NCBI GenBank assembly: GCA_900317325.1 | Contig: ONGE01000010.1 | Span: 1-64,000 of the forward strand | Origin: an uncultured Prevotellaceae bacterium | Lineage (GTDB): Bacteria > Bacteroidota > Bacteroidia > Bacteroidales > Muribaculaceae | Direction: 5' to 3' | Length of the DNA: 64,000 nucleotides | Shown here: positions 16,982-44,697 of the stretch, piece after piece | How the letters are laid out: the number at the start of each line of letters is the position of its first letter | Numbering within the stretch: the first letter of the stretch is position 1 | Translations under genes and position numbers: made by a program | The notes under the pieces: generated by a model | Seen by the model: only the letters and a program-made list of their open reading frames with translations | Database searches by the model: none | Told to the model about the DNA's origin: nothing

Positions 16982-17860
16982 ATGAAACCTTCTGATTTTA
17001 TCCATCCTGAAGATGCAGCGGCACTGCGTCAAATGGAGAGCATCCCCGGTTTTTCAGCATTAGTGAAAAAGGTGTTGGCCATCGGCATCGAAACGCTGCA
17101 ATATGGCGTGAACATGGCATCGACAATCCGCTTGTCCGAGAAACAATTGCCGCACATCTACAAGCATCTACCGCCCATCTGTGAAAAGATGGGTATCGCC
17201 GAACCTGAGTTTTATCTGCAAATGGACCCGAATCCCAATGCGTGGACCATGGGTGACACGCGCATCTACATCACCGTGACATCAAGCCTGGTGGAGATGA
17301 TGAGCGACGAGGAACTCGATGCCATCATCGCCCACGAGTGCGGTCACATCTTGTGCCGTCATGTGCTCTATCACACGTTAGCACAGTGGCTGAGCAGCGG
17401 CATCGCTTCGTTGGGAGTACTGGGCAAGCTGGCGGTTCCCATCCAGTACGCGCTCTTGTACTGGTACCGCAAGAGTGAGCTGTCGGCCGACCGTGCTGCA
17501 AGCATCATCACCACGCCCGATGTGGTGGCCAGCACGATGGCACGCTTGTCGGGCGGTCCCAAGAGCCTGACGTCGCAAATCGACATGCGCGAATGGGCGA
17601 AGCAAGCCGATGAGTATGACCAGATACAGAACTCAGGCCTCTGGAACAAGGCCCTGCAGCTGTCGGTCATCATGGGACTTGACCACCCGTTCTCGGCCGT
17701 GCGCGTGCGTGAAATCCTCAAGTGGAGTGAGAGTGAACAATACAACATGATCAAGAACGGCAAGTTCCAGATTGAAGCGCCCGAGGGCATCTGCCCCCAT
17801 TGCGGCAATTCGATTGACAAAGATTGGAAATTCTGCCGCAATTGCGGACACGAACTATAA
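16982..17860 (+). CDS. M48-family metallopeptidase with C-terminal zinc ribbon
   Basis: 292 residues. The zinc protease motif is HECGH (His118, Glu119, His122) with the third ligand Glu166 in SELSADRAA, the M48 'ExxAD' signature. A short hydrophobic stretch (HTLAQWLSSGIASLGVLGKLAVPIQYALLYWY region, ~128-160) lies between them as in HtpX/Oma1-like enzymes. The C terminus carries a four-cysteine ribbon (Cys271/274/285/288), which is unusual for M48 enzymes and recurs in the gene two places downstream. It is the first gene of the operon; the next start is 20 bases away. Likely role: regulated proteolysis of a partner in this system, by inference. Confidence 0.9.
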   Translation: MKPSDFIHPEDAAALRQMESIPGFSALVKKVLAIGIETLQYGVNMASTIRLSEKQLPHIYKHLPPICEKMGIAEPEFYLQMDPNPNAWTMGDTRIYITVTSSLVEMMSDEELDAIIAHECGHILCRHVLYHTLAQWLSSGIASLGVLGKLAVPIQYALLYWYRKSELSADRAASIITTPDVVASTMARLSGGPKSLTSQIDMREWAKQADEYDQIQNSGLWNKALQLSVIMGLDHPFSAVRVREILKWSESEQYNMIKNGKFQIEAPEGICPHCGNSIDKDWKFCRNCGHEL

Positions 17861-17880
17861 ACTTAAAAACTATTATAACT

Positions 17881-18135
17881 ATGATTTTCAACGAACAAGG
17901 ATTTTTAGACATCGACGGCATGATTGCTGCCGAGCCGTCATTCCAGAACATTATGGCCGACGGCATAGTGACTGAAGAAGAGCTGCACCAGCAGAGCGAC
18001 ACCGTTATCGGCCTCATGCGAGAGGTGGAGCAACGTTTCAGCGAGGAAGACCAGGCCTTCATCAAGCGCCTGTTTGCCGAGACCAACGTGCTCACCACCA
18101 TTTACCATTATTATGAACTTCAACACCTGAAATAG
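17881..18135 (+). CDS. small acidic helical protein, 84 aa, unknown
   Basis: No family is recognised. It is soluble, mostly helical and acidic, beginning MIFNEQGFLDIDGMIAAEPS. The pattern 'ADGIVTEEELHQQ ... SEEDQAFIKRLFAE' resembles a TerB/EF-hand-like tandem-helix fold, where 'DG-x-x-T-x-E-E' turns join two helices. The gene lies 20 bases after the M48 gene and two bases before the zinc-ribbon gene, so it is a genuine operon member despite its size. Confidence 0.7.
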   Translation: MIFNEQGFLDIDGMIAAEPSFQNIMADGIVTEEELHQQSDTVIGLMREVEQRFSEEDQAFIKRLFAETNVLTTIYHYYELQHLK

Positions 18136-18137: not shown

Positions 18138-18653
18138 ATGGCACGATACAAAACTCAAAAACTGCTTCAAGCACATCCGTCACAAATCGAGAAAATCGCC
18201 GAAGCCATTCGCACCGAATTCACTAACGATGGTTTTGAGGTCATGGTCGACGACCTGATGAGCGGCGGCAAGGATATCAGCATCACCAAGGGCAACATGT
18301 TCAAGGCGGTCCTGGGCATGAAGTCGGCCCTAAAAGTCGTACTCACCCCGCAGTCCAATGGCGTCATGTTTGACGCTAACGTGGGCATCTACGGCCAGCA
18401 GGCGATTCCCACCGTCATCTCGATGTTCTTCTTCTGGCCCGTACTGATCACCCAAATCTGGGGCCTCGTAGAGCAATCCAAACTTGACGACCGAGCCCTC
18501 ACTACCGCCGAGAGTGCCATCGGCGCGCCGGCAGCTGCCCCCGCAGCCGCTGCCTTTTACCAGAACGTGCCCACCAAGTTCTGCACCAACTGCGGCGCCC
18601 AAATTAACCAAGCAGCCAAATTCTGCCCTAACTGCGGCGCTCAACTGATGTGA
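18138..18653 (+). CDS. membrane-associated zinc-ribbon protein
   Basis: 171 residues. The N-terminal ~85 residues form a small alpha/beta domain (LLQAHPSQIEKIAEAIRTEF, then a DISITKG hairpin). One hydrophobic segment (~89-111, AIPTVISMFFFWPVLITQIW) is followed by an Ala/Pro linker and a C-terminal ribbon (Cys149/152/163/166, FCTNCGAQ / FCPNCGAQ). No known family. The ribbon matches that of the M48 peptidase in the same operon, so both may dock to a common partner. Its stop overlaps the region of the next gene's possible GTG start. Confidence 0.75.
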   Translation: MARYKTQKLLQAHPSQIEKIAEAIRTEFTNDGFEVMVDDLMSGGKDISITKGNMFKAVLGMKSALKVVLTPQSNGVMFDANVGIYGQQAIPTVISMFFFWPVLITQIWGLVEQSKLDDRALTTAESAIGAPAAAPAAAAFYQNVPTKFCTNCGAQINQAAKFCPNCGAQLM

Positions 18654-18655
18654 TT

Positions 18656-21136
18656 ATGATACTGATGAATGCAGCCAACGAGAAAGTAGTGGTTACCCTG
18701 GACCAACTGCGAGCATATTGTGAACATTTAGGCGAAAAAGGCTTGTGCACATTCAATGAGTATGCATGTGCGCTAACGGGAGGCGGCTTGGTATCGGCTG
18801 CTATATTCGTGGTGCTGATGGGCGCTTTGGCCTATTTATTCTACAAAAAGGAGGGTGCGTTGAACTGGTGCGACCGAAACCTGACCTATGCTTTTGTCAT
18901 TGTGTGGATATTAGGCTTTGTGGTCTATGACGTAGGTATGTATCCCGACCACAGCGTGAAAGAAAATGCCTTCTGGGCGCTACTGGGTGTAGCGCCCATG
19001 GCGGTCATCCACGCGTTCGGGATGTTCATCTTGCAGAGTGATGTGAGCGCAATCCACGATGGTTGCCACAACAGCGCCTGGTTCATGTTCTTCTTCTCCA
19101 TCGCCCACTTGCTGGCTGCATTCATCAGTATGGTTTTTGTCATCAAGCATTTCGGGTTCAACATCGTGGCTCATGTCATCAGGGTTTACAAGACATACTT
19201 CTGGCCAAAAGAGAAAGAGAACCTTTACATTTTCTGGGGAATGAATGACGCGACCTATTATCTGGCCAAAGACATCATTAACCCCAAGGATTCCAACAAT
19301 ACCCACCCCGATGCCCGCATCATGATCATCCGCGTGAACAACGCCAAGGAGGATCCCAACAAACGCATCGGCATGGACCGCCTGTTCAGTTTCCTATCGT
19401 TGTCAAACAATAATCTGGACAATTTGCAGGAACTGCAAAAAATGGGTTGCCTCACCAACAGCACGTTTGGTTCGTTGACCGACATTCAGGCCAGCAACAA
19501 GAATGACCTCATCAAACGTGAGCTGCGCCTGAACAGCGTTGCCAAGTTGATGAATCGCACAACCGGTAAGGTACACATGTTCTTCCTTGACGACAACGAG
19601 GCTTTTAACCTTCAAGCCATCGGCAACCTCAAGCGTGACACGACAATCAACAGATTCATCAATGAAGGAGATAGAAAAGTCATATTCTATTGTCACGCAC
19701 GCCACAACAGCATCCACCGCGTGATTGAGGATGAACCGTCACACCAGAATATCGAGGTAAAGGTCATCGACTCTTCACATCTGAGCGTAGAGCAACTGAA
19801 ACTTCCAGAAAACATCTATCTGCAACCCGTCAGATATGTGGATATCGAGGACGATGCCACGGTATCTTCGGCCTTTAAGGCCCTGGTGATAGGCTTTAGT
19901 GAGGTGGGACTCGATATGGTGAGGTTCTTATATGAGTTCGGTGCTTTTGTCAAGTATAAAAAGAAGGATGAGAATGCCCCTAAAAACCAGAATGTGACAG
20001 CAGAGGGAACGGAAGAAAATCCGGTGGATCGTTCAGATTTCCACTGCTATGTGGTAGATAAAGAGATGAATTCATTGTCAGGCTCCTTTGTGTCCAAGAC
20101 TCCGTCTATCAATGTGGCCATTAATCCCACGAGCGAACAAGAATATCAAGATGCTTTAATCAGTCTCCACCACATCGACTGCAAAAGCGCAGAGTTCTAT
20201 CGCAAAGTTGAGAATTGGCTCCCCACAGTCAACTATATTGTACTCGCGACTGGAGACGATGAATTGAACATGTCACAAGCCATTCGCTTGTTCAAACTGG
20301 CGATTCGTTACAACAACACGTCACGGCTTCGCATCATGGTGCGTGTACAGAATGACGAGAATGGGCATTTCCAAAGAATCGCTCATCACTATAACCGCCT
20401 ATGGGCAGCTGAAAGGAGAAGCACTCCTAAGGAGAACAAGATGAACCAAAAGGTCATCCACGCATCAACTGAAATCAACAGCCCCATAACGTTGTTTGGC
20501 TCTGCCGAGAAAATCTACACTTTTGATCACATCATCAACGAGTCATTAAAGGAGAGCGCCAAAAAGTTCAGGGAGAAATATGACAATTCTCTTAACAATC
20601 ACTTGAAAGAGATGAATGAAGAGCCTAATGAAATCATAAGTTGGGAGGAGGAACAAAACAGAGCGATGCAATTGGTTGACAACGAATACAAGAATTTTTC
20701 TCCCACTTACAGCGGCATCATGGGCTTGAGAAGAAAGCAAAGTCAAAACTATGCCAACAGTCTGCACATCAAGACAAAAGTTGTGTTAGCATGCACAGCG
20801 CTCAAAATAGATGCGAACTTAGGTTTGTGCGGATTAATCAGGCAAGGCGAAACAACCTACAAATGGGATGGAGAAAACAACCCGTTGCCAATTGAAACCG
20901 TGCAAAGGGTGATGGACGTGTTGGCACAAACCGAGCATTTACGGTGGGTGGCAACACATGAGATCCATGGCTATCAAATCGACAATGATAATCCCAAAAG
21001 CAAGGACGAGGCACGATTATTCCAACGTTACATGTGTAATTGGAACAAATTAACTCCAAGAGAACGGAGTTATGATTACAATACTATTGATGTTTCATTC
21101 CAAGAAGCAAAACTTATCAATGAACCTAATCAATAA
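18656..21136 (+). CDS. four-helix membrane protein with tandem TrkA-N/Rossmann-like domains and C-terminal RyR-like domain
   Basis: About 826 residues. Four hydrophobic helices fill residues ~40-180 (for example SAAIFVVLMGALAYLFYK and FAIV-type segments ending MVFVIKHFGF). A first Rossmann-like unit follows (LYIFWGMNDATYYLAKDII) and a second near residue 400 (ALVIGFSEVGLDMVRFLYEF), the arrangement of RCK/TrkA-N regulatory domains on ion channels. The C terminus (LAQTEHLRWVATHEIHGYQ, Glu760 in EHLRW) resembles the RyR domain pattern 'E-H-x-R-W'. Starts are possible at GTG 18650, ATG 18656 or ATG 18665. By layout it could be a ligand-gated membrane sensor or channel-like protein, but no pore motif is seen. 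The next gene, six bases on, has the same Rossmann-RyR build without the membrane part. Confidence 0.75.
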   Translation: MILMNAANEKVVVTLDQLRAYCEHLGEKGLCTFNEYACALTGGGLVSAAIFVVLMGALAYLFYKKEGALNWCDRNLTYAFVIVWILGFVVYDVGMYPDHSVKENAFWALLGVAPMAVIHAFGMFILQSDVSAIHDGCHNSAWFMFFFSIAHLLAAFISMVFVIKHFGFNIVAHVIRVYKTYFWPKEKENLYIFWGMNDATYYLAKDIINPKDSNNTHPDARIMIIRVNNAKEDPNKRIGMDRLFSFLSLSNNNLDNLQELQKMGCLTNSTFGSLTDIQASNKNDLIKRELRLNSVAKLMNRTTGKVHMFFLDDNEAFNLQAIGNLKRDTTINRFINEGDRKVIFYCHARHNSIHRVIEDEPSHQNIEVKVIDSSHLSVEQLKLPENIYLQPVRYVDIEDDATVSSAFKALVIGFSEVGLDMVRFLYEFGAFVKYKKKDENAPKNQNVTAEGTEENPVDRSDFHCYVVDKEMNSLSGSFVSKTPSINVAINPTSEQEYQDALISLHHIDCKSAEFYRKVENWLPTVNYIVLATGDDELNMSQAIRLFKLAIRYNNTSRLRIMVRVQNDENGHFQRIAHHYNRLWAAERRSTPKENKMNQKVIHASTEINSPITLFGSAEKIYTFDHIINESLKESAKKFREKYDNSLNNHLKEMNEEPNEIISWEEEQNRAMQLVDNEYKNFSPTYSGIMGLRRKQSQNYANSLHIKTKVVLACTALKIDANLGLCGLIRQGETTYKWDGENNPLPIETVQRVMDVLAQTEHLRWVATHEIHGYQIDNDNPKSKDEARLFQRYMCNWNKLTPRERSYDYNTIDVSFQEAKLINEPNQ

Positions 21137-21141: not shown

Positions 21142-22683
21142 ATGAGCAATAAAAAGGTATTGATAGTTGGGAATCATCCGGTGGTGGATGACGTAAGGCG
21201 GCAGTACGAAGCAAAAGGTTGGACAGTTTGGTGCCTGGCTGACGCCTGTGCCGATGATGTCGAAATGGGTGGATTTGACGAGCTCTTCTTGACAGCAGAT
21301 TATTGTGCTGATCACTCTGATGCCGAGCGGCAAAAGGCGATGGCTGCCGACTATGCAGCGATGGCATTGCTGGGACGGCTGGCCGATGGGGTGAATCTGG
21401 AGAAACGGGGCGGCAAGAAAGTGCGTTGTCACCTGCTGGTCAATACTGTCGAGGCCTTGCGGATGCTGCAGACCACCGACTGGAACGACGGCATGCGCGA
21501 GCGCGTGGACGTGTATCCGTTCTCGATGGATGAAGTGTGGAGCCGCCAAATCAGGCTGGACCATGAACCCGTCACGGTGCAAAGCGACAGGCATGTGCAT
21601 CTGGTCATCATCGGGATGAGCGAAATGGGCGAAATGGTGGCCATCAACGCAGCCCAGATGGCACATTTCCCGAATTACGTGCGCAACCACTCGTTGCGCA
21701 CCCGCATCACATTAGTCGATGAGCAGGCGATAAGTAAGAGCGAGGTCATCATCAAGAGATACCAGCACCTGTTTGACAACAGCTATTACCGCATCGTGAA
21801 GCCCGAAGAACCTGATGCTGTGAAACTGTTCCACAAACCGATGTATGAAGGCCTACGAGAGGACTTCGTGGACGTGGAGTGGGAATTTGTGCAGGCGACG
21901 GCCAACGACATCACTTTGCGTGAAAAGCTTACCCGCTGGGCCAAAGACGAGCTCCAGCAACTGACCATCGTGCTGGCCCATGACGATGCCAACCGCAACA
22001 TCGGCGAGACCATGCTCTTGCCCGAGGCCATCGGTCAATGCCAAGTGCCGGTGTATGTCCGTTGCCCCTACCCTGCGACTTTCGACCACAGCCCTCACAT
22101 CAGGCCGTTCGGGATGGTGAATCAAGGCTATGACGTGACACTGCCACTGGTCAGGCTGGCCATGAACGTGAATCATGTGTATGACCGTTGCTATGCCGAC
22201 AACTATGAGGCTTGGAGCGGCCAGCTGCGCTATGCCGTAGAGATTGACAAGGTGGCGCGAGACGCCTCATGGTCGCGACTGAGGAACGTGAAGCGCATGT
22301 CGAGCATCTACAATGCCATGAACATCCCCATCAAACTGCGCTCCATCGGGCTTGACAAGGGCGAGTGGAACAAGTTCTATGACATTCCGCAGCAAGACAT
22401 TGAATTGCTCGCGCAAGTGGAGCACAACCGCTGGAGCGTCGAGGAACTCATCCTGGGATGGCGCCCCTGCACCGACGAAGAGCTGCGAGCCGTGGAAGCC
22501 GACATCGACAAGAAAGAAGAACTGAAGCGGCAACGCATCCATTATGACCTGTGTGCCTACAACGAGTTGAAACTTGACAAGACCGGCAAACCGGTCACCA
22601 TCTATGACCTGTGCCTGTGTTCTTGCCTGCCCTTGATCACCAAAGCCTTTGCCGATGAGGAAGGAGAAGCCATAAAGTCATGA
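21142..22683 (+). CDS. soluble Rossmann/RyR-domain protein
   Basis: 513 residues, no signal or membrane helix. The N terminus KVLIVGNHPVVDDVRRQYEA and a second unit at ~150 (HLVIIGMSEMGEMVAINAAQ) look like nucleotide-binding Rossmann folds of the TrkA-N kind. The C-terminal region (~415-485) reads LLAQVEHNRWSVEELILGW, with Glu427-His-Asn-Arg-Trp, and later KRQRIHYDLCAYNEL, the hallmark of prokaryotic RyR domains, which are thought to bind ligands or peptides. It starts six bases after the membrane RyR-like gene and overlaps the FHA-trypsin gene by four bases (ATGA), indicating coupled translation. A cytoplasmic sensor role is inferred. Confidence 0.8.
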   Translation: MSNKKVLIVGNHPVVDDVRRQYEAKGWTVWCLADACADDVEMGGFDELFLTADYCADHSDAERQKAMAADYAAMALLGRLADGVNLEKRGGKKVRCHLLVNTVEALRMLQTTDWNDGMRERVDVYPFSMDEVWSRQIRLDHEPVTVQSDRHVHLVIIGMSEMGEMVAINAAQMAHFPNYVRNHSLRTRITLVDEQAISKSEVIIKRYQHLFDNSYYRIVKPEEPDAVKLFHKPMYEGLREDFVDVEWEFVQATANDITLREKLTRWAKDELQQLTIVLAHDDANRNIGETMLLPEAIGQCQVPVYVRCPYPATFDHSPHIRPFGMVNQGYDVTLPLVRLAMNVNHVYDRCYADNYEAWSGQLRYAVEIDKVARDASWSRLRNVKRMSSIYNAMNIPIKLRSIGLDKGEWNKFYDIPQQDIELLAQVEHNRWSVEELILGWRPCTDEELRAVEADIDKKEELKRQRIHYDLCAYNELKLDKTGKPVTIYDLCLCSCLPLITKAFADEEGEAIKS

Positions 22684-24014
22684 GTGAGAAGAAATGGTAC
22701 ATATCGTTAACCTGCAAAGGCGCTAACGCATTCCACCCCGACGGGCAGCGCCTGAAGCTCATCGAGCGAACCGTCAACATCGGCGAGAGTGCTGATTGTG
22801 ACGTGCGCTACGATAACGGGGATTTCACACCCGAGTACTACGCCTCCATCCTCCGGAACGAGGACGGCAAGAGCTGGCGCCTTGTCAAACGTTCCCAGCA
22901 CGTGGGTGTCAGCATAGCAGGCAAGGGGCCCATCGGCTACGCCTGCCAGCTGGCCGACGGTGACATCATCCAATTTGACGACCAACCGATGGCACTGCTT
23001 TTCCATGCCCACCACGATGAATATTATCGGGAGGACGATACTCGCAAGAGCATCTGGCCCCGCATGGCCGTCATTGCTGCCTGTATCATCGCGGCTGCAG
23101 CAGGTCTCATTTACGCTCTCAATAACGAGCAGCCCATTAATGAGCAAGACGTGGCCCCGCTCGAGGAGTCCATCTACCAAATACGGGTTGACTCGGTACA
23201 GCAACTGCTTGTCACAGGAGGGCACGAAGAGCTATTGCGACCCTCCAAGGTGCTTGAAGAGGCAGCGCCCGTCGGGACCGCGTTCCTGACCACCGACGGC
23301 ATCATGGTCACGGCCCGCCATTGCGTGGAGTACTGGTTGGGCACACAACTCGACTTGACGACCGACGTGAGCACATTAAGCGACGATGACATCGTCAAGT
23401 GGGCCATCGAGACCGAGACCTACAACCAGACGCATGAACCAGGCGACTCGCTGATGATAATGCGTGTTCACTTCAGCATCTATGACTTCACGGGAGAAAA
23501 ACGATATGCCTTCTCCTCCACCGATGACCATGTACACATCAATACCGCCCACGACGCTGTGTTCCTGCTCGGCGACTTCAGCGAGGAGTACTACTGGCGA
23601 AGCATCAGGCCCTACTTTGTCGAGCGTGAGATGGAACTGGGCGACATCCTGTGGATTGACGGCTTTGACGAGAAAGGCAAGGTCAAACTCGCCTCGAGCG
23701 AAGATGTGAAGAAACTGCACAACGGCAGCCGACTGATGGTGTGCGGCTATCCCATGACCGGCATCGGTGACAACAGCTTCACCAGCACCAGCGGTTCAAT
23801 CAGGCGCGAGAGCAAGGCCAACAGCGAGAATCTGTTTTTCGAGAGCAACATCAACCACGGTTATTCCGGCGGTCCCGTCCTCATCAAGACATCTGGAGGC
23901 ATTGCCGCTGCAGGCGTCGTGTCCAGGGTGGACAGCGTGAGCAGTGGCCTGTACAAGTGGGCAGTGCCGGTCACCGAAATCAAGCTGACGAAAGGAGGAG
24001 TCAACAATGAATAA
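22680..24014 (+). CDS. FHA-like domain / membrane helix / trypsin-like serine protease
   Basis: 444 residues. Residues ~5-110 form an FHA-like fold (RTVNIGESADCDVRY ... LADGDIIQFDD), but the phosphate-binding Arg of the 'GR-S' loop is Glu36 and the 'SRxH' motif is missing, so phosphopeptide binding is doubtful. A membrane helix lies at ~126-146. The rest is a chymotrypsin-fold protease with a complete predicted triad: His214 in TARHC, Asp292 in HDAVFLL, Ser396 in GYSGGP. N-in topology would place the FHA part in the cytoplasm and the protease in the periplasm. It overlaps the previous gene by four bases and the next by eight, so the three products are probably made together. Confidence 0.88.
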   Translation: MSEKKWYISLTCKGANAFHPDGQRLKLIERTVNIGESADCDVRYDNGDFTPEYYASILRNEDGKSWRLVKRSQHVGVSIAGKGPIGYACQLADGDIIQFDDQPMALLFHAHHDEYYREDDTRKSIWPRMAVIAACIIAAAAGLIYALNNEQPINEQDVAPLEESIYQIRVDSVQQLLVTGGHEELLRPSKVLEEAAPVGTAFLTTDGIMVTARHCVEYWLGTQLDLTTDVSTLSDDDIVKWAIETETYNQTHEPGDSLMIMRVHFSIYDFTGEKRYAFSSTDDHVHINTAHDAVFLLGDFSEEYYWRSIRPYFVEREMELGDILWIDGFDEKGKVKLASSEDVKKLHNGSRLMVCGYPMTGIGDNSFTSTSGSIRRESKANSENLFFESNINHGYSGGPVLIKTSGGIAAAGVVSRVDSVSSGLYKWAVPVTEIKLTKGGVNNE

Positions 24015-24573
24015 ACGCATCACCCTGAGAGACATCGCTGGCTATTGTCCCGAAGAGGCCATCTGGAGAATGGCTGCCGATTTGGGACAATGCATCAAAG
24101 ACAACAGCCAGTGTCCCACGTCGCCTGATGAGGTCATTGTTGACGGCCTGTCGTTCCTCATCGGTGAGAAAACCGACGAGCAACCCGAATTCATGCCGCC
24201 CGAATGCGTCAACAAGGCACCATGCGGGCAACCGCAGCAAGTGTGGACCCTGGGCGCGCTCATTTACCACGCCTCGTCGGGGCGCACATTGTTCGGTGGT
24301 CACGGCGGAGCATACCAGAAGACTCACCCCAACGTATTGCTCCCCTCGCTGCAAAAAAGCCACCAGTCGCTGACGGCCCTCATGCAGCAATGCCTACATC
24401 ATGACCCGTCGTCGCGCATCAGCATCAGCAAACTGGTGGATGAGGCGCTCAAGGGCTTGGAGAAATGCCGGAAAACGACCCGCAGCCATCGTAAGGCTGC
24501 TCAAGATGCCGCGGCGACAAGCGACAAGCGAAGAAAAGAAAACTGGCCCGAAGAAATGATCGAAACGATATGA
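24007..24573 (+). CDS. pseudokinase fragment (protein-kinase C-lobe only)
   Basis: 188 residues. FMPPECVNKA matches the APE-type motif that follows a kinase activation loop. QVWTLGALIYHASSGRTLFGG matches the 'D-x-W-S-L-G ... G-x-x-P-F' helix, with Val in place of the usual Asp. LTALMQQCLHHDPSSRIS matches the last C-lobe helices ('C-L-x-x-D-P-x-x-R-P/I-S'). The ATP-binding N-lobe, HRD loop and DFG are absent, so it cannot be an active kinase. The overlap with genes on both sides (8 and 4 bases) and intact frame argue that this is a maintained adaptor, not a decayed gene. It would be cytoplasmic, where it could meet the adjacent FHA-like domain. Confidence 0.75.
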   Translation: MNKRITLRDIAGYCPEEAIWRMAADLGQCIKDNSQCPTSPDEVIVDGLSFLIGEKTDEQPEFMPPECVNKAPCGQPQQVWTLGALIYHASSGRTLFGGHGGAYQKTHPNVLLPSLQKSHQSLTALMQQCLHHDPSSRISISKLVDEALKGLEKCRKTTRSHRKAAQDAAATSDKRRKENWPEEMIETI

Positions 24574-25208
24574 AAACCAAAGTAATACTCTGCATCATCG
24601 CCATCTGGCTATGCCATGTTCCATGTCAGGCCCAGTCGATTGCCGATACCTATCTGAGCAAATTGACCGAGGACGTGAAAACCATACGCAAAAAGAAAGC
24701 CACAAAGGACATTCTCAATAAAACTGTGCTGAACTGGTCGGCCGTCGGCAAACCTAAAATCACCCTGATGGATGAAATCAAGCGTCACGACGGGGAATAC
24801 CGGGGAAAAGACGTCTTCAAATTCAAGATGAACCAACTCGTCTATCACGTTCACGACCGTCAAAACGCCAAGATGGTGTCGAAGGGGGACTACTTCAACA
24901 GCAACGAGAAAAACGTCTTCTACTCAATGATCGAGAAAACGGTCAAGCGCGGGCAAACAGTCACTTACAAAATCACCGGGCACGCCGGGAAACAAGAGTT
25001 TGTCTTCATCGCATTCAATCCCAAATCACAATTGGCACCTACCGTGAATAACGTGCCGGCAAAGCCCCTTGGTGACGGCGTGTGGACCATCGTTCTTGAC
25101 AAGGTCAAGGCCAGCGACGCCATCACCCTGTCAATCTCGCTCAATGCCAAGGACGCGGCTCAGTATGAGTCCTTCGTCATCCTTAATCACAATCCGCAGA
25201 AGCCATGA
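24570..25208 (+). CDS. secreted protein with C-terminal beta-sandwich, unknown
   Basis: 212 residues with a signal peptide (MKTKVILCIIAIWLCHVPCQ, then AQS). The middle is Lys-rich. The C-terminal ~100 residues (TVKRGQTVTYKITGHAGKQE, FVFIAFNPKS) resemble the end of the 30183-30866 product (FVKAGKSTRYTFASKGHQEL, AVVAES), which suggests a shared beta-sandwich ligand-binding domain. The function is not known. Overlaps by four bases with the pseudokinase and with the first CHAT gene. Confidence 0.7.
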   Translation: MKTKVILCIIAIWLCHVPCQAQSIADTYLSKLTEDVKTIRKKKATKDILNKTVLNWSAVGKPKITLMDEIKRHDGEYRGKDVFKFKMNQLVYHVHDRQNAKMVSKGDYFNSNEKNVFYSMIEKTVKRGQTVTYKITGHAGKQEFVFIAFNPKSQLAPTVNNVPAKPLGDGVWTIVLDKVKASDAITLSISLNAKDAAQYESFVILNHNPQKP

Positions 25209-37312: not shown

Positions 37313-40300
37313 ATGAATAATATGAAAAAGTATATTGAGTTACCGAGTATTCGTTTCTATTCAATTTGTTTTTTGTTGTTCGTTCTATCAGGATTCAGTT
37401 TGGAGGCTAAGGATGACAACAGTGAATTGATAAGAAAGATTGCTGAGGCTTGTGTCTCGGGCAGTCATGAAGAGAGTGACTGCAACTTGTTGAGACAGGG
37501 AGCCGAGCTATTCGGATTGCAGGAATTAACTGAACTGGCCATCATGTTGGAGAACAAAACCCTGGACAAGGGCGATAAACAGAAGATAGCTGCAACCTCA
37601 TCGCTGCTTGGATGGGCAGAGCGAAAATACGGAGAAGGTTCATTTGAGGCCATTATCTGCCGACGCAGTTACCTCAACGCCATCAGCTCAACAGATATGC
37701 TCAAGGCCCGCGAAATCAGCAAGAAGAACGCCAACCTCGCCAAAACCCTCGCAGCTAAGAATCCCCGCAACAAAGAACATAAGATACTTGAATTGGTAGC
37801 ACGCCTCGACTATCTCTATTCATTCGAACCATTCTCTGATGACAGTCCTGAGGGCTGGATAGAACTTTATACTGTAATCAAAGAAGCAGGACCATTCATT
37901 GATAAAGGAAAATGTGACACTCCCGAGCTAATTGATCTGTACATGCTTATTAACTCGTTGAGTAAACGGAGCACATCTTATCAGGACTATGTTAATGTCT
38001 ATCTGATGGACAGCGTGTTTAACGACAGCTATCCAATTAAAGCATTCGAGGATTGGGCCCAATTACTGAAAACAGCTTTGAATGGCTGCAAGGCCCTTCG
38101 AGGTGAAAACCATGTCCAGACATTATACCTTGAACTTGAGTATCTATCTGAACAATTCCAAAATCAATCAGGTGATTACGATGTCCTTCATTCTCGCATC
38201 AGCGAGATTCAGAATCGTTTGACCAATTACTGTCCACCCAATGACTTGCGACCTCTTGTCGCCGAATTGCTGAAATGGGACTGCGATATCGTGTATGGTA
38301 AAAACTTATATGAAGTGATGAGTCCCTTATCTGTTTTGCAGAAGATTGCTGATATCTACGGAGAAGAAAGCGATATCTATCTCAACTATCTATTCCGCAT
38401 CATGTATCAACAATTGGCTGTCAAACCAGAAAGGGCCGCCACTTTGTGCCAAGAAGCTCACACTCTAGCTGAAAAACTTTATCCTAAGGATTCAGATGAA
38501 TATGGATTCTACTTGCTGAACATGTTCGATGCCATACAGTCATTATCGGACCATAATCCACAGTTGCTTCAAGACTATGTCTCAAATATTTGCGAGCATT
38601 ATCGCGAATCTCACCACCCCACATGGTTATCTATCTCAATCGGGAGGAATCTGGCCACAAAACTTTCAGATATTCTGTTTCAATATGACTTAGCCGCAGA
38701 TATTGAGGAGATATCGTTCGATGATTTATGCCTAAAGGTTTCAAATAAATCTGCACTTTATGCCTATTGTTACTATGATAACGCATCCTGTCAAATAAAT
38801 GCTACCGATCAAGCCATCCATGGTAGTGCAGAACAAAGTCTTGAAAAATGCATCAAACTATTCAAACAATGCCATCTTAGTTCGGCTCATATCTCGTATT
38901 ATTTAGCTCTCTTGCTTTTCCAAAATCACAAAGAGGAAGAGGCCATTAAAGTCATGCGCCAAGGCATAGCCGACTGTATACCTGGAATTGATGACCAGTG
39001 GCGATGCCAACTGCAGCTGAGTTTGGCAAATTTCGGACTTTATAATCCGTCTTTATCAATTTCCGGCAAACAGATTGATGAACTTTTTAGTCAAGCTATT
39101 CCTTTCTTCATGCAACACCCTGAAAATCATAATGATATCTTTCTTTCAGGATATAGAATCATAGGTGATTATTATCGTTGCAAAAAACGCAATCAAGATG
39201 CTGAAGAGATATACAAACAAGGCCTTGAATTTGCTGAAACTCACAATGGCAATACACAACGCAATGAATACATTCAGCTAATATCAGCATTATGCTACTT
39301 ATATACAGACATCATGCAACTCGATAAAGCCGAACAACTCATGGAGGGCCGAATCGAATTACTTCAAAAAGATCCTTATTTTAACCGGCACGATTTCCTA
39401 CTCAATCTTTTATGGAACCGCTATTATGTAATGAAAAGCAAAAGCGATATTTCACTTAAAATGTTCGCGTTAAATGATATACTTAAAGAAGTGACTTTTA
39501 TCTATCAACGCAGTGGTAATAACCAAAAGGGATTCATCCAGTTGATGATTCCAGTACTTTTTGAGTATGGTTCATTTCTCAGCGAATGGTCTGAAATGAG
39601 AAAAGAAGCTGAGAGAGCCTTAAAATATAATGAGGGGCAACAGAATATCGATCCGATACTTAATTCTTTCATTCAACAAGAAGAGTCTTCCAAAGCACTA
39701 TTGCATGACATTTTCACTTATATCGAAGAAGTTGCAAATATCAATCCCACTTGGTTTGACGATATTGCGACATATCAACTTAATTCTTCTTTCTTCGACT
39801 ACTATATGTATGTTGAAAACGATACTTTAAGAGCAGAGAATTACTTGCAGAAAATCATACAATCCAACTCCATCATTAATCGCTATCGAGGCACATATCA
39901 GCTAGCACTATTGAGAATGAATCAGGGTAAAAATCATGAAGCTCTACGGTTATTTGAACAAATAAAATCAATCGCCAAACAATTACCTACATTATTTGGC
40001 GGACCTAAAAATAACTCAGAGTTTAACTACCTGCTTTGTTCATCATACTACAGTGTAAAAGAATATGAGAAGGCTATTGAGCCTGCTCGGGATTTCTTTA
40101 AGTATCAGCAACAGATGGTTCAACAGAACTTTGACTTTTTAACGCAGAGTGAGCGTGAGCAATTTGTCAGCGAACAGGGTGGAGCTGGCAGTACGGGGTT
40201 GTTGCTGCTACTGCCTCATTTCCCGGAGCGGTTGTCTGGTGAGGGTTATAATGCCGTGCTGGCCGAAAAAGGCCTGCTGCTGCGTTCATCTGAGCGCATC

Positions 40301-41731
40301 AAGCGGTCGATTCAACAACTCAAGGACCCCACATTGATTGCACAAATGGATACGTTGAACCGGTTGAATATGGCATTGAGCACCATGAACATGAATAATA
40401 GGAATCCTGGTGAAGAATTCTCATACAATCCCGAAGTCCTTGAACTGCGACAACAAATCGAAACGCTAGAACGTAACATCAACCGCCAAGCCGCCAAGTC
40501 CATCAGCGGAATGGAAACGCCTGACTGGAAGCATCTTCAACAGGCGCTTCGTCCTGGTGAGGCCGCTGTTGAGTTCGTTGTCTTAGACTCCATCGGCGCC
40601 ATCGTGCTGCTGCCCGAGGGTGAGCCACATTACATTTCATTGAATCAAGCCAGCAACCTGTGGCAAGAGCTTCACGGCCTCAGCAATTCTTTGGCCAACA
40701 GAAAAGCGAAGGCTTTATATGACGAAGACCGTTTCCATCTCTACGAGAAGATATGGCAGCCTATTGAGCCTCTGCTGAATGGGATTAAAACCGTGTATTT
40801 CTCCCCGACAAGTTTCTTGAACGAACTCGTCTTCTCGGCCTTCAAATGCGGTGCTACAGAATACCTTGCTGACCGCTACGATTTGCACCAGATGCTTTCG
40901 ACCGGCGACTTGATTGAACTCAGAAAAACCAATAATACCAGCCAACCGAAATCTGCGCTGCTCATCGGCGGCGTGTATTACAGCCCTGAGCATGAGCAAG
41001 TGGCTGCAGAATGGGCACGAAACAATGAGCAAAGGGCCATTGAAGACGAAAGGGGCGCCATCACTGAAGATAACGAAGAGTTCGGATATCTCCCCTTCAC
41101 GCGGTTAGAGGTTAATCGTCTGGGCAAGCTTCTCAGCAACAACCACGTGAACACTCAACAAGGAATCGGTTTTGAGCCCACCGAAGAGTCATTCCGTTCA
41201 CTCAGCAATGCCAGTCCTTCCATCATGCATCTCTCGACGCATGGATTCTTTGTTGCAGGCAACGATGTCGGGAAGAACAAATACCTCTCGCGCTTCCCCA
41301 TGTCGATGTACTCAAGCATGCAGCGATGTGGCCTGGTGCTGGCCGACGGCAACCACACTTGGGAAGGGGCGAAGGACAAGCCTGTAGATAATGATGGTAT
41401 CATCGCGGCCAGCGAAGTGGCTCTGCTTGATCTGAGTTCGACTCAGCTTGCCGTTCTGTCGGCCTGTCAAACCGCAGTGGGCGATTACAGTCAAGAAGGC
41501 GTTTATGGTATGCATCGCGGATTCAAGCAAGCAGGTGTCAAGAGCATACTCGCCACCATGTGGAATGTAAATGACCAGAGCACTGCACGCTTCATGGAGC
41601 TTTTCTATCAACGATGGTTGTCAGGAATGCCCATGCAACAATCATTCAACGAGGCGGTGAAAGACTTACGCAAAGAATACCCGTCACCATATTTTTGGGC
41701 ACCATTTGTCTTGATGGATGCCATCAATTAA
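37313..41731 (+). CDS. exported TPR-CHAT protease, copy 4 (large, mosaic)
   Basis: 1472 residues. A signal-like hydrophobic segment (FYSICFLLFVLSGFSLEAK) follows the start; ATG 37322 is an alternative. TPR-like helices fill ~60-950. The CHAT domain has His1310 (LSTHGFFVAG) and Cys1385 (LSACQTAVG), with YGMHRGFKQAGVKSILATMW after it. The first ~2.8 kb is A/T-rich; from about 40140 the composition switches to that of the flanking genes, near the TPR-CHAT border. The gene starts 27 bases after copy 3. Confidence 0.9.
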   Translation: MNNMKKYIELPSIRFYSICFLLFVLSGFSLEAKDDNSELIRKIAEACVSGSHEESDCNLLRQGAELFGLQELTELAIMLENKTLDKGDKQKIAATSSLLGWAERKYGEGSFEAIICRRSYLNAISSTDMLKAREISKKNANLAKTLAAKNPRNKEHKILELVARLDYLYSFEPFSDDSPEGWIELYTVIKEAGPFIDKGKCDTPELIDLYMLINSLSKRSTSYQDYVNVYLMDSVFNDSYPIKAFEDWAQLLKTALNGCKALRGENHVQTLYLELEYLSEQFQNQSGDYDVLHSRISEIQNRLTNYCPPNDLRPLVAELLKWDCDIVYGKNLYEVMSPLSVLQKIADIYGEESDIYLNYLFRIMYQQLAVKPERAATLCQEAHTLAEKLYPKDSDEYGFYLLNMFDAIQSLSDHNPQLLQDYVSNICEHYRESHHPTWLSISIGRNLATKLSDILFQYDLAADIEEISFDDLCLKVSNKSALYAYCYYDNASCQINATDQAIHGSAEQSLEKCIKLFKQCHLSSAHISYYLALLLFQNHKEEEAIKVMRQGIADCIPGIDDQWRCQLQLSLANFGLYNPSLSISGKQIDELFSQAIPFFMQHPENHNDIFLSGYRIIGDYYRCKKRNQDAEEIYKQGLEFAETHNGNTQRNEYIQLISALCYLYTDIMQLDKAEQLMEGRIELLQKDPYFNRHDFLLNLLWNRYYVMKSKSDISLKMFALNDILKEVTFIYQRSGNNQKGFIQLMIPVLFEYGSFLSEWSEMRKEAERALKYNEGQQNIDPILNSFIQQEESSKALLHDIFTYIEEVANINPTWFDDIATYQLNSSFFDYYMYVENDTLRAENYLQKIIQSNSIINRYRGTYQLALLRMNQGKNHEALRLFEQIKSIAKQLPTLFGGPKNNSEFNYLLCSSYYSVKEYEKAIEPARDFFKYQQQMVQQNFDFLTQSEREQFVSEQGGAGSTGLLLLLPHFPERLSGEGYNAVLAEKGLLLRSSERIKRSIQQLKDPTLIAQMDTLNRLNMALSTMNMNNRNPGEEFSYNPEVLELRQQIETLERNINRQAAKSISGMETPDWKHLQQALRPGEAAVEFVVLDSIGAIVLLPEGEPHYISLNQASNLWQELHGLSNSLANRKAKALYDEDRFHLYEKIWQPIEPLLNGIKTVYFSPTSFLNELVFSAFKCGATEYLADRYDLHQMLSTGDLIELRKTNNTSQPKSALLIGGVYYSPEHEQVAAEWARNNEQRAIEDERGAITEDNEEFGYLPFTRLEVNRLGKLLSNNHVNTQQGIGFEPTEESFRSLSNASPSIMHLSTHGFFVAGNDVGKNKYLSRFPMSMYSSMQRCGLVLADGNHTWEGAKDKPVDNDGIIAASEVALLDLSSTQLAVLSACQTAVGDYSQEGVYGMHRGFKQAGVKSILATMWNVNDQSTARFMELFYQRWLSGMPMQQSFNEAVKDLRKEYPSPYFWAPFVLMDAIN

Positions 41732-41742
41732 AGTAGAACATT

Positions 41743-44697
41743 ATGATGAAAAGAACATTCGTATTAACGGTTTTAGTGATCATCGGCATTGCCTGCTGGG
41801 GGCAGACAGTGGAGCAGGCCCGTGAGTTGCATCAGAAGGGCTATGCACTGCTTGACAGCGGGGATTATGTACAAGGGCGTGAATACACGCGGCAGGCGAT
41901 GGAGATGCGCCGCCAGCTGCTGGGCGAGGTGAGCGAGAATTACATCACGTCGCTGAACAATTATGCCCTGTCATTTGCAATGGAGCAGAACTACCAACGA
42001 GCCGTTGAATTGCAAGAGCAGGTGATGACCTTGTGCGACAAGCTGCCTTCGCCCCACCCCAACCTGGGCATGTACATGACCAACATGGGGCGCTACTACT
42101 ATATGACAAACAACTATCAGGCGGCTGCCACGACATGGGAACGAGCCCTGCCACTTGTCGAAAAGTTCAGCAAGATCTATGAATTCCTGCTCAACGGGCT
42201 TGGTTTAGTCTACAGCGAATTGGACGACAAGAAGAATCTGGAACATGTCATGTCGCCCATGGAGGAGCATAACCAACATGAATTGACTTTACCATGCGAC
42301 GAGCCTCAGTGCATGCTGGAACGCGCCCAGTACTATGCAGCCATCAAAGACAACGCAAAGGCCAAAGAACATTTCATGAAACTGCTGAAGATGAAGCTGG
42401 ATGATGCCATGAAAGCTCAGGCTTACGATGCCTATGCCAAGTTCCTTTTCTCCAACAACGACTATGTCAATGCAGCAGAGTATTCTCATTCTGGAGGCCT
42501 CGCACTGAAGCGAGTCCAAGGAGAAAACGAAGAGTATGTCCAAATGATGTACCGTGCGGCGGTCTATTCCTTCCTTGGTGACCAGTATCAGACGGCTGTT
42601 GACGACTATCAGACTGTCATCGGTTTCTATCGCCAGCATGATTCACCCGCAGCCCGCAAGAGCATTGCTGACTGCTTCAAGGGGATGGGCAACGCCTACA
42701 GCGGTCTCAAGAATTATGAGAAAGCCAAGGAATGCTTCACCAAGGTCATAGAGTATTACCAGACCTATGACATTGACAATGATGAGTACCCCAAAGCAAT
42801 ACTGCGTCTCGCCAAAGCCGAAAAGTTCAACAAGGAATTTGACACCAGTATCGATCACCACCAGCAGGCCATTACCCTGATGAAAGAACGAGGCATGAAC
42901 AACGAGCTGAGCGATGCCTACTCATCGCTGCAGCTATGCTATGCCCATGCCAACCGGCCCATGCCTGAAATGGACTATTCACTCCCCGATGCCGCCCGTG
43001 ATGCCCGCTTGAGAAGCATCATTGACGACAATCTGGCCAATCTGGAAATCACGCGCCAGTTTCTCGGTAATCTGACGTATGCACAATCCTTGGCAACCAT
43101 TGCAGGAAGCTACGCGATGCTTCAGGAGTATGCTCCCGCTGTCGATTACTACAAAAAATACATCGTTGCCGTGCGAGACGCCATCCGTGACGAATTCCGC
43201 CTTCAAGACGAGAATGAACGAATGATAACATGGCAAGACGAGGGCAACACCATACAGGAAATGCAAGAACTGATGGTCTCATTGCCAGTGGGCCAGGAGA
43301 CGCTGATGGATGAGTTGGCAGGGGTCATCTATGATGCAGAGCTGCTGTCCAAGGGTATCTTGCTCAACTCGTCTATTGAGTTTGAGCGAGTACTTAACGA
43401 CTTGGGAGACCGAAAACTCAAAGCTACCTACGAGCAGACCAAGGCCAACTCAAGCCGCATCGCCGACCTGCGCCAGCACGCCCAAAGCGATGAGGAACTT
43501 GAACAGTTACTGGCCTTGTCGCAGGAGAACCAGACACTGCTGCTGCAATTATACAACGGATGTGCCTTGCTGGCCGACTTCACCGACTATATCTCTTATA
43601 AATGGCAAGACGTCCAGCTAGCGCTGGACAAGAACGATGTCGCCATCGAGTTTGCCGCCATCAAAACAAGCATCTTCGACCAAGACAACTTCATGGCTGC
43701 CCTCGTGCTGACCAAGGATATGAACCATCCTGTGGCCCTGCCAGTGTGCAATCTGGCCGAGGCCCGCATGATAGAAAACCACGAACAACTGTTTGAGTTA
43801 TCGGGCAATCCCGTGTGGGGAGCACTGAGCCAATATCTTGCAGGCAAGAAGCGCATCTTCTTCTCGCCCGACGGCAGTTTCAACCGCATCGGCATCGAGT
43901 ACCTGCTATATGATGGCCAGCCATTGTCCCAGCAATACGAGGTTTACCGCCTGTCATCCACCAAGGAACTTTGCCACAAAAGAACCGCTACCCCTATCCG
44001 GCAAGTGACACTGCTGGGCGATATCGACTACAACGAAGCGGCTGACTTGAGCGACCGTCTGGATTCAGAAGTGCTTGAAGGATTCCGTGGAAATAAAGGT
44101 CTGGCCAACCTGGACAACACCAAACTTGAGGTCGACGAGATCGAGAAATTGCTGAAAACCAAGAAAAACATGAAAGTGCACAAGCTGATAGGCCCCAAGG
44201 CCAGCCACACCGCCTTCAACAAACTTAATAAGTCCAACGTGAATGTGCTCCACATCGCCACCCATGGCATGTACCACGATCAGAAGGGAGCGAGCGACGC
44301 CCAGTCGATGGACAACGCTTATCTTGCCCTCGCCGGTGCCAATGTGAGCGACGACGGCTTTATTACTGCGGCCGAGATTGCCAAGATGAATCTGCGAGAA
44401 TGTGATTTGGCCGTGCTGTCGGCCTGTGAGACGGGACTCGGCAAGTTGGGAGGAGACGGCGTGTTCGGTTTGCAACGCGGATTCAAGAATGCCGGAGTCC
44501 GCACACTGCTCATGAGCCTCAAGCAAGTGCACGATGCATCCACAGCCCTGATGATGACGGCCTTCTATCGCGAACTGCTGAAAGGTTGCACCAAACGCGA
44601 AGCCCTCATCAATGCTCAAAACGAGCTACGCAGCAAGGGCTATAACGATGCCCGATACTGGGCCTCCTTCATCCTGTTGGATGCTTTAGACCAGTAA
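41743..44697 (+). CDS. exported TPR-CHAT protease, copy 5
   Basis: 984 residues; signal peptide region MMKRTFVLTVLVIIGIACWG ending at GQT. Classical TPR units occupy ~25-420 (LHQKGYALLDSGDYVQGREY, KGMGNAYSGLKNYEKAKECF). The CHAT domain has His841 (IATHGMYHD) and Cys895 (LSACETGLG), then VFGLQRGFKNAGVRTLLMSL and YWASFILLDALD. A Lys-Gln replaces the usual Trp in 'SLW' (SLKQVHD). Composition is uniform. It is the last gene of the operon and converges with the PUL regulator gene, with 30 bases between the stop codons and no evident hairpin. Confidence 0.92.
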   Translation: MMKRTFVLTVLVIIGIACWGQTVEQARELHQKGYALLDSGDYVQGREYTRQAMEMRRQLLGEVSENYITSLNNYALSFAMEQNYQRAVELQEQVMTLCDKLPSPHPNLGMYMTNMGRYYYMTNNYQAAATTWERALPLVEKFSKIYEFLLNGLGLVYSELDDKKNLEHVMSPMEEHNQHELTLPCDEPQCMLERAQYYAAIKDNAKAKEHFMKLLKMKLDDAMKAQAYDAYAKFLFSNNDYVNAAEYSHSGGLALKRVQGENEEYVQMMYRAAVYSFLGDQYQTAVDDYQTVIGFYRQHDSPAARKSIADCFKGMGNAYSGLKNYEKAKECFTKVIEYYQTYDIDNDEYPKAILRLAKAEKFNKEFDTSIDHHQQAITLMKERGMNNELSDAYSSLQLCYAHANRPMPEMDYSLPDAARDARLRSIIDDNLANLEITRQFLGNLTYAQSLATIAGSYAMLQEYAPAVDYYKKYIVAVRDAIRDEFRLQDENERMITWQDEGNTIQEMQELMVSLPVGQETLMDELAGVIYDAELLSKGILLNSSIEFERVLNDLGDRKLKATYEQTKANSSRIADLRQHAQSDEELEQLLALSQENQTLLLQLYNGCALLADFTDYISYKWQDVQLALDKNDVAIEFAAIKTSIFDQDNFMAALVLTKDMNHPVALPVCNLAEARMIENHEQLFELSGNPVWGALSQYLAGKKRIFFSPDGSFNRIGIEYLLYDGQPLSQQYEVYRLSSTKELCHKRTATPIRQVTLLGDIDYNEAADLSDRLDSEVLEGFRGNKGLANLDNTKLEVDEIEKLLKTKKNMKVHKLIGPKASHTAFNKLNKSNVNVLHIATHGMYHDQKGASDAQSMDNAYLALAGANVSDDGFITAAEIAKMNLRECDLAVLSACETGLGKLGGDGVFGLQRGFKNAGVRTLLMSLKQVHDASTALMMTAFYRELLKGCTKREALINAQNELRSKGYNDARYWASFILLDALDQ

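What the first reader, a model, noticed from the sequence alone, without database searches (positions are those of the whole stretch)
16982..44697. A 28-kb, 16-gene operon combining M48 peptidase, RyR/Rossmann proteins, FHA-trypsin, pseudokinase, TIR-FGE and five CHAT proteases
Seen: one strand, gaps from -8 to +116 bases, at least five ATGA-type overlaps, one recognisable promoter at the front, and intact catalytic residues in the peptidases and TIR domain. Known: CHAT, TIR, trypsin-like, FGE and RyR modules each recur in bacterial immunity and programmed-death networks. Inference: this set in one operon looks like a self-contained signalling/conflict system in which several proteases are wired to ligand-binding (RyR/Rossmann) and NAD-linked (TIR) sensing. 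I do not recognise it as a named defence system. The next-door integrase and relic genes show the spot accepts foreign DNA.
Basis: partly seen in the sequence, partly recalled or inferred. Interest (0 to 1): 0.92.

Follow-up and report, generated by a model that had tools for sequence, protein, structure and literature searches.

The report
RyR-sensor, envelope-protease operon of gut bacteria
Gut Bacteroidales carry a conserved but mix-and-match gene cluster that joins a ryanodine-receptor-type nucleotide-sensing domain, recurrently found beside TIR enzymes, to membrane-anchored and secreted proteases, suggesting an unnamed immune-like signalling system that spans the cell envelope.

Summary
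The 16-gene same-strand run at 16982-44697 is real but not one fixed unit: module A (M48, g2, zinc ribbon, RyR membrane protein), a conserved core g5-g10, and an exchangeable tail (TIR-FGE, g12, four CHATs). The core order (Rossmann/RyR, FHA-TM-trypsin, kinase C-lobe, secreted beta protein, secreted CHAT, g10) recurs across Bacteroidales: g6 in 53 and CHAT in 49 of 78 fetched loci, often with 4-base overlaps. Protease catalytic residues are kept; the FHA phospho-binding Arg is missing in all 53 rows. g4 models as an RCK gating-ring-like membrane protein ending in a RyR domain. The residues that bind 2'/3'cADPR in phage RyDEP are invariant in seven aligned g5 proteins. RyR and TIR genes co-occur (26/30 RyR genomes vs 18/119 others) and adjoin; a restriction-gene control shows no association. 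A close relative keeps the core but has a diverged g4 C-half and a replaced g11-g16. Best reading: a Thoeris-like, envelope-spanning conflict system in which RyR proteins read an ADPR-type signal and relay it to extracytoplasmic proteases. Function is inferred; that relative has no TIR in its slot, and 28 of 53 core loci show none in the fetched flanks.

The parts
16849..16879 (+). promoter-like site before g1 (TTG, 20 nt, TATCTTTG)
   Evidence: read; Bacteroidetes consensus recalled
16982..17860 (+). g1: M48 metallopeptidase with C-terminal zinc ribbon (module A)
   Evidence: Pfam M48 2.6e-18; HECGH; homologue in 7 of 149 family genomes at E<=1e-20
17881..18135 (+). g2: small protein of unknown function (module A); ATG start chosen by me, tool lists TTG 17824
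   Evidence: 42-45% homologues next to g1/g3 in G094 and G042
18138..18653 (+). g3: zinc-ribbon protein with one predicted TM (module A)
   Evidence: Pfam Zn_Ribbon_1 1.9e-9; hydropathy
18650..21136 (+). g4: four predicted TM helices, RCK gating-ring-like Rossmann domains, C-terminal RyR domain; C-terminal half diverged in the nearest relative
   Evidence: AlphaFold model pLDDT 77; Foldseek to GsuK/TrkA/Slo1/CASTOR; alignment A3; identity drop
21142..22683 (+). g5: soluble Rossmann + RyR protein, first gene of the conserved core
   Evidence: alignment A2, invariant H428, W431, H467, D489; 73 of 78 loci
22680..24014 (+). g6: degenerate FHA - TM - trypsin
   Evidence: Pfam trypsin 6e-5; TM 129-147 and Arg loss in 53/53 rows; His/Asp/Ser kept
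24007..24573 (+). g7: protein-kinase C-lobe remnant (pseudokinase)
   Evidence: Pfam Pkinase 2.5e-10, profile positions 161-259 of 263; fused to g8 in 19 loci
24570..25208 (+). g8: signal-peptide-like protein, related to g12
   Evidence: hydropathy; hhalign with g12 prob 96, E 2e-9
25205..27406 (+). g9: CHAT protease with signal-peptide-like N-terminus
   Evidence: Pfam CHAT 2.4e-34; His 51/51 and Cys 50/50 letters in homologues
27443..28726 (+). g10: secreted-looking protein of unknown fold, end of the core
   Evidence: alignment A1; 37 of 78 loci; no fold match at E<=0.001
28843..30153 (+). g11: TIR - TM - FGE-like domain (exchangeable tail)
   Evidence: Pfam TIR_2 3.7e-10, FGE 1.7e-17; E83; TM 181-199
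30183..30866 (+). g12: secreted-looking partner of g11
   Evidence: 42%/47% g11-g12 pair in G100:C64; g12 adjacent to a TIR gene in 4 of 4 loci where found
30892..32772 (+). g13: CHAT protease (tail)
   Evidence: Pfam CHAT 1.3e-24
32843..37285 (+). g14: TPR-CHAT (tail)
   Evidence: Pfam CHAT 1.8e-50
37313..41731 (+). g15: TPR-CHAT (tail)
   Evidence: Pfam CHAT 4.8e-49
41743..44697 (+). g16: TPR-CHAT (tail)
   Evidence: Pfam CHAT 2.2e-50
44728..46383 (-). DUF6377 gene: conserved edge of the variable slot (not part of the system)
   Evidence: Pfam DUF6377 5.6e-84; orthologues of 72-91% identity in 10 of 30 other genus genomes searched

Best explanation
A modular, envelope-spanning conflict (probably anti-phage or anti-invader) system. 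Proposed chain: (1) a TIR enzyme, here g11, whose TIR domain is tethered through a TM to an FGE/lectin-like domain, makes an ADP-ribose-type signal from NAD when triggered; (2) RyR domains on the soluble protein g5 and on the RCK-type membrane protein g4 bind that signal; (3) loaded g5, with g4 at the membrane, acts on the cytoplasmic ends of g6 (FHA) and g7 (pseudokinase), which serve as docking modules and not as phospho-readers; (4) the change passes through the membrane to the g6 trypsin domain and the g7-g8 pair and activates secreted CHAT proteases (g9, then g13-g16), damaging or remodelling the envelope and stopping the invader or the cell. Shown here: gene content and conserved order, topology by hydropathy, kept protease residues, lost phospho-signalling parts, RyR ligand residues, RyR-TIR association, RCK-like fold of g4 (predicted model), cassette exchange. 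Inferred: the signal, the direction of the relay, protease activation, the biological role.
For: Core order in Bacteroidales loci. RyR-TIR co-occurrence 26/30 vs 18/119, p=2e-13, and TIR within 1 kb of 13 of 42 RyR matches vs 0.09 expected, with no association for PF01420 (18/30 vs 67/119, p=0.44). 48 TIR proteins in 33 of 78 loci vs 0.35 expected, Glu in 33 of 34 letters. RyR ligand residues invariant in g5 and RyR domains shown to bind cADPR isomers in phages (PMC13232231). RCK-like model of g4. Trypsin and CHAT residues kept, FHA Arg lost. g7-TM-g8 fusions in 19 loci. Cassette exchange.
Against: No activity, binding or phage test. In the nearest relative the core is kept but g11-g12 are gone and no TIR was found in the 21.5 kb fetched; 28 of 53 core loci have no TIR in the fetched flanks, many of which are cut short. 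18 of 42 RyR matches have no TIR within 20 kb. The window's own g4 has Gln at one RyR ligand position. CHAT shows no genome-level association with RyR (6/30 vs 23/119). g4 has no K+-filter-like motif. Orientation of g11 is unsettled (positive charges on both sides of its TM).
Confidence: 0.45

Rival explanations
1. Envelope or metabolic stress control: the RyR/RCK parts sense ordinary adenine nucleotides (ADP, ATP, NAD, ADPR) and the trypsin/CHAT set is a regulated extracytoplasmic protease cascade for envelope quality control, not immunity.
For: Best fold matches of g4 include GsuK bound to ADP or NAD; 28 of 53 core loci lack a TIR in the fetched flanks; M48/HtpX-like relatives are quality-control proteases (role recalled).
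Against: Patchy distribution (g4 in 17 of 149 family genomes), slot exchange and TIR association are unlike housekeeping.
Confidence: 0.25
2. RyR domains as brakes: like phage RyDEP, host RyR domains degrade or sequester TIR signals, so g4/g5 and the standalone RyR proteins switch TIR immunity off or protect from self-activation.
For: The His and Asp equivalent to RyDEP's catalytic dyad are kept; six of eight phage homologues tested bound but did not cleave (PMC13232231, section 5); small RyR-only genes lie beside TIR genes.
Against: RyR is fused to RCK-like domains and TM helices in g4 and leads the trypsin operon, an architecture expected of a receptor.
Confidence: 0.12
3. Accessory to the neighbouring polysaccharide-utilisation locus.
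For: It lies next to DUF6377 and SusC/SusD genes.
Against: The PUL edge is conserved in the genus while in eight of ten relatives the fetched slot stretch has no homologue of g1-g16; core homologues lie in other neighbourhoods.
Confidence: 0.05

Closest known systems
Thoeris (TIR plus nucleotide-activated effector), especially type IV with a caspase-like protease
   Same: TIR gene and putative nucleotide-binding proteins in one operon, proteases as output (type IV: N7-cADPR activates a caspase-like protease; passages of PMC12847820).
   Different: RyR/RCK receptor parts; CHATs are secreted-looking; a TM trypsin and pseudokinase-g8 relay; the tail with the TIR is exchangeable.
Phage RyDEP and its RyR-domain homologues (anti-Thoeris)
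   Same: Same RyR domain family and ligand residues.
   Different: Host-encoded, fused to Rossmann/RCK and TM parts, beside TIR genes; RyDEP is a phage protein that destroys the signal. RyDEP itself was not aligned here.
VMAP/MoxR ternary and DGR-linked conflict systems of multicellular bacteria
   Same: Trypsin, CHAT, TIR and FGE-type lectin-fold modules (passages of PMC10907252).
   Different: No MoxR-type AAA or vWA Pfam hit in the 16 genes; a RyR sensor instead; that paper's text has no occurrence of RyR.
RCK-gated channels (GsuK, TrkA gating ring, Slo1, CASTOR)
   Same: Predicted tandem RCK-like fold of g4.
   Different: No K+-filter-like motif in 17 g4-type proteins; extra RyR domain.
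PP2C/kinase/FHA-trypsin clusters (G044, G098)
   Same: FHA-trypsin and kinase relatives of g6/g7.
   Different: Those have full kinases and a PP2C phosphatase; here both phospho-parts are degenerate.

Membership tests
Thoeris | TIR gene in the same operon as a nucleotide-binding effector | tested here: inconclusive
   TIR with catalytic Glu in the window run; g5/g4 RyR domains are putative binders only; core loci often without a TIR in the flanks
Thoeris | known ThsA/ThsB proteins | tested here: not met
   g11 only weak TIR-level hits to ThsB models (E 0.001-0.005) among PADLOC models; NCBIfam ThcB4 33.4 vs cut-off 220 bits
Thoeris | protection from phage | not testable with these tools
   no experiment possible
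Type IV Thoeris | cytoplasmic caspase-like protease activated directly by the TIR signal | tested here: not met
   the five CHATs have N-terminal signal-like segments; activation itself not testable
RyDEP | phage-encoded RyR-domain protein | tested here: not met
   g5 relatives: none confirmed in viral contigs, no match in plasmids
RyR domain (PF02026) | H, W, H, D ligand residues | tested here: met
   all four invariant in 7 g5 proteins; three of four in the window's g4; Pfam scores below cut-off
RCK K+ channel | RCK fold | tested here: met
   27 Foldseek matches at E<=0.001, RCK channels or gating rings by title; TM-scores to query only 0.22-0.27
RCK K+ channel | K+ selectivity filter | tested here: not met
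   no T[VILTM]G[YFLI][GDS] in the first 230 residues of 17 g4-type proteins
Phosphothreonine kinase-FHA signalling | FHA Arg and an active kinase | tested here: not met
   Arg absent in 53 of 53 rows; g7 matches only the kinase C-lobe
VMAP/MoxR ternary conflict system | MoxR ATPase and vWA protein | tested here: not met
   no such Pfam hit in the 16 proteins; the VMAP domain itself was not searched for
MADS (mad6) | full mad6 kinase within a MADS operon | tested here: not met
   g7 matches 219-332 of 659 profile positions and scores 22.6 vs cut-off 460 bits in NCBIfam

The most novel reading that the evidence does not exclude
Bacteroidales own a host cADPR-RyR signalling pathway: TIR receptors make an ADPR-type messenger, and RyR domains on RCK gating-ring membrane proteins and on soluble partners are its receptors, driving a membrane output and a phosphorylation-free, trans-envelope trypsin-to-caspase-fold cascade. 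It would be a bacterial counterpart of cADPR control of ryanodine receptors, with exchangeable sensor halves and effector tails, and the host source of the domain that phage proteins such as RyDEP use against TIR immunity.
Probability: 0.3. Interest if true: 0.95.

Novelty: new variant of a known kind. Interest (0 to 1): 0.8.

Why it matters
Phage RyR-domain proteins were reported in 2026 to bind and destroy TIR-made cADPR signals (PMC13232231). If host genomes place RyR domains next to TIR genes and on RCK-type membrane proteins, RyR domains may be natural receptors of TIR signals, which bears on the old question whether cADPR acts on the RyR domain of ryanodine receptors and where that domain came from. 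It would also add an envelope-directed output (TM trypsin to secreted caspase-fold proteases) to bacterial TIR signalling, in common gut and rumen bacteria. The parts are small enough for direct binding and activation assays.

Tried and rejected
Mobile origin of g5: no tblastn match in plasmids and no confirmed relative in viral contigs (162 stretches matched a pattern, none confirmed), so the core is treated as chromosomal. Fold of g10: model of moderate quality (pLDDT 61), no PDB match at E<=0.001. PDB sequence relatives: none for g5, two non-significant for g10. CHAT-RyR association at genome level: absent, so it is claimed only for the core operon. Phospho-relay: rejected, key residues missing. 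PUL regulation: rejected by slot comparison. Promoter/terminator scan of 27300-46900: 14 terminator-like sites vs 17.5 expected, 48 sigma-70-like sites vs 30.6 expected; the latter consensus does not suit Bacteroidetes (recalled), so uninformative.

Limits: the 78 loci come from the 80 best of 289 g5 relatives; families were assigned with profiles built from those loci, so counts lean towards the query, and the loci are not independent lineages. Gene calls were mechanical. Expected TIR numbers assume 2.6 Mb per genome; several RyR matches can come from one genome (42 matches in 30 genomes). The PF01420 place list was cut off by the tool, so only its genome table (85 of 149) was used. For CHAT distances I gave the script 7 of the 56 listed CHAT places. 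The 149 genomes are a sample of the family. PADLOC saw 10 of the 16 proteins, NCBIfam 10. Literature: ten searches (listings) showed no paper describing a host RyR-TIR-protease operon; Yirmiya 2025 on TIR systems and two further works are not held and could describe parts of it. Rousset 2025 was not read; known through passages of PMC12847820. PMC7159879: passages only, no RyR, CHAT or FGE in its text.


Full report
WHAT IS THERE. The window is contig C16 of a 3.47 Mb draft genome in 44 contigs. Its nearest named relative is a goat-gut Muribaculaceae MAG, 91% identical in g5. The 16 ORFs are on the + strand with the stated spacing. Pfam, over all 16 proteins, confirms M48, zinc ribbons, trypsin, kinase C-lobe, TIR, FGE and five CHAT domains. 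Hydropathy gives four TM helices in g4, one in g3, one in g6 between FHA and trypsin, one in g11 between TIR and FGE, and N-terminal signal-like segments in g8, g9, g10, g12 and g13-g16. In homologues a hydrophobic N-terminal decamer is seen in 55 of 63 g9, 33 of 37 g10, 31 of 35 g8 and 4 of 4 g12 proteins. So there is a cytoplasmic side (g5, FHA, pseudokinase, TIR) and an extracytoplasmic side (trypsin, g8, CHATs, g10, probably FGE).

CONSERVED CORE. A scan of one genome for each of 84,980 species with the g5 alignment matched 383 stretches; 289 encode relatives; the best 80 gave 78 loci, all titled as Bacteroidetes, nearly all as Bacteroidales or a family or genus of it (three titles say only Bacteroidetes or Bacteroidia). 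Gene calls and profiles show g5 in 73, g6 in 53, g7 in 49, CHAT in 49, g10 in 37, g8 in 34, TIR in 33 and g4 in 23 of 78. Adjacent same-strand pairs: g5-g6 49 (median gap -4), g6-g7 48 (-4), g7-g8 27 (-11), g8-g9 27 (-4), g7-g9 19 (-4), g9-g10 34 (+19). In 19 loci g7 and g8 are one protein of 388-425 residues with a hydrophobic segment at the joint, which ties the pseudokinase to the beta domain across the membrane. Of the 25 loci without g6, many (Alistipes, Bacteroides and others) pair a RyR protein with a g5-type protein and lack the protease genes.

KEPT AND LOST. In 53 g6 rows (window included) the trypsin His is kept in 53, Asp in 52 (one gap), Ser in 53. In 52 g9 rows CHAT His is kept in 51 (one gap) and Cys in 50 (two gaps). 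The FHA position that should be Arg (FHA motif recalled) is Gln in 36, Glu in 10 and other in 7 of 53 rows. g7 matches only kinase profile positions 161-259 of 263. Proteolysis looks constrained and phospho-signalling lost, so FHA and C-lobe look like docking parts (inference). The FGE domain of g11 lacks the Cys pair of true formylglycine-generating enzymes (motif recalled; sequence), so it is probably a binding domain.

THE RyR DOMAINS. Phage RyDEP binds 2'/3'cADPR through H75, W78, H100 and D117, residues shared with animal RyR domains (PMC13232231; abstract, passages and the whole of section 5 read). In the 7-protein g5 alignment the equivalents H428, W431, H467 and D489 are invariant. In the 16-protein g4 alignment the first His, Trp and Asp are invariant and the second His nearly so; the window's own g4 has Gln there, while its alleles in L068 and G153 have His. 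The mapping went through standalone RyR proteins, one of which matches animal RyR and solved bacterial RyR-domain entries; RyDEP itself was not aligned.

THE MEMBRANE PROTEIN. The g4 model (pLDDT 77, pTM 0.73) has 27 PDB matches at E<=0.001, best 5.8e-7, and by their titles these are GsuK (with ADP or NAD in some), the TrkA gating ring, Slo-type channels, CASTOR and one entry called potassium channels. TM-scores to the query are only 0.22-0.27, so I take this as evidence for RCK-like domains, not for a whole channel. No K+-filter-like motif was found in 17 g4-type proteins.

RyR AND TIR BELONG TOGETHER. In one sample of 149 family genomes RyR (PF02026) is in 30 and TIR in 44. 26 of 30 RyR genomes have TIR against 18 of 119 others (p = 2e-13). 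Of 42 RyR matches 13 have TIR within 1 kb (0.09 expected) and 24 within 10 kb (0.91 expected), 23 of these with one on the same strand; 18 have none within 20 kb. Control for defence-island clustering: type I restriction specificity genes (PF01420, 85 of 149) show no association with RyR (18/30 vs 67/119, p = 0.44), and neither does CHAT (6/30 vs 23/119, p = 0.56). In the 78 loci 48 TIR proteins lie in 33 loci against 0.35 expected, 42 on the operon strand; 24 have a hydrophobic segment after the TIR; the catalytic Glu is in 33 of 34 letters of 37 aligned rows, out of 49 proteins given. Against the simple reading, only 25 of 53 core loci show a TIR in the fetched flanks.

MODULES AND EXCHANGE. 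It aligns with window 15760-16580 (91%), 16780-19965 (89%), 21153-28804 (93%) and 44724-44885 (97%). g4 falls from 98% in residues 1-100 to 76-79% in 201-439 and 43-53% from 440 on, while g5-g10 are 91-99% identical. g11-g16 are replaced by two secreted-looking proteins, the larger one TPR-rich. In G153 the slot holds g1, g2, a g4 at 58% and a RyR-only gene; profiles for core and tail families found nothing else there. Ten of 30 other genus genomes have a close DUF6377 orthologue (72-91%); SusC follows it in eight of these, the other two stretches ending too early; in eight of the ten no homologue of g1-g16 appears on the slot side over 2-18 kb fetched. Module A genes (G094, G042) and a TIR-FGE-g12 pair (G100) also occur without the core nearby. 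So the finding is a stable core with a changing sensor half and tail in a hypervariable slot.

FUNCTION. The most economical reading is Thoeris-like logic with a new receptor and an envelope output. Known Thoeris systems keep the TIR and the nucleotide-binding effector in one operon, and type IV uses a caspase-like protease (passages of PMC12847820). Here the receptor would be RyR with Rossmann/RCK parts, and the proteases sit outside, with a TM trypsin and a pseudokinase-g8 pair as relay. FGE-type lectin folds are proposed sensors in other conflict systems (passages of PMC10907252), so TIR-TM-FGE could be the trigger. The orientation of g11 is open: positive charges flank its TM on both sides. 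No step has been assayed.

KNOWN OR NEW. PADLOC gives single-domain resemblances only, for the 10 of 16 proteins scanned. Ten literature searches listed no paper on a host RyR-TIR-protease operon; three relevant works are not held. I file it as a new variant of TIR/nucleotide-signal-linked protease systems; if the RyR-receptor reading holds it would be a new kind.

Noticed in passing
window 15827-16585: AAA_21/ABC-type ATPase-like ORF just before the run, also kept (94% protein identity) at the same place in L068/G170; it may belong to the slot.
   Followed up: partly
window 7143-8507: Tyrosine-recombinase-type integrase (Pfam Phage_integrase, PHROG integrase) upstream of the run.
   Followed up: no
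L042 5872-16370 (G044) and the matching G098 region: Cluster with two full protein kinases (one kinase-FHA), a PP2C phosphatase and an FHA-trypsin relative of g6: a possibly phospho-active cousin of g6/g7.
   Followed up: partly
G005:C21:124437-126730: CHAT, TIR and RyR matches side by side on the same strand, another compact combination of the same three domains.
   Followed up: no
phage records MT837259.1 (928-1215) and MT836850.1 (1150-1434): Two unannotated human-faecal phage records encode proteins 65% and 57% identical to the bacterial standalone RyR protein; 151 phage records in all match it at E<=0.01.
   Followed up: no
L070, L073, L088, L090, L102, L103, L105, L111, L114, L116, L142: A related group of large proteins, one of them an nSTAND1 ATPase by Pfam, recurs near the core in these 11 loci; possible extra sensors.
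   Followed up: partly
L071, L095, L111, L142; L074, L103, L117, L122: Recurrent small neighbours: a DUF1492/sigma-factor-like protein (4 core loci) and a PrsW intramembrane protease (4 core loci).
   Followed up: no
L155 2712-3998 (G153): Pentapeptide-repeat protein between the g4 homologue and the RyR-only gene; its C-terminal part looks TIR-like by eye but no TIR profile matched.
   Followed up: partly
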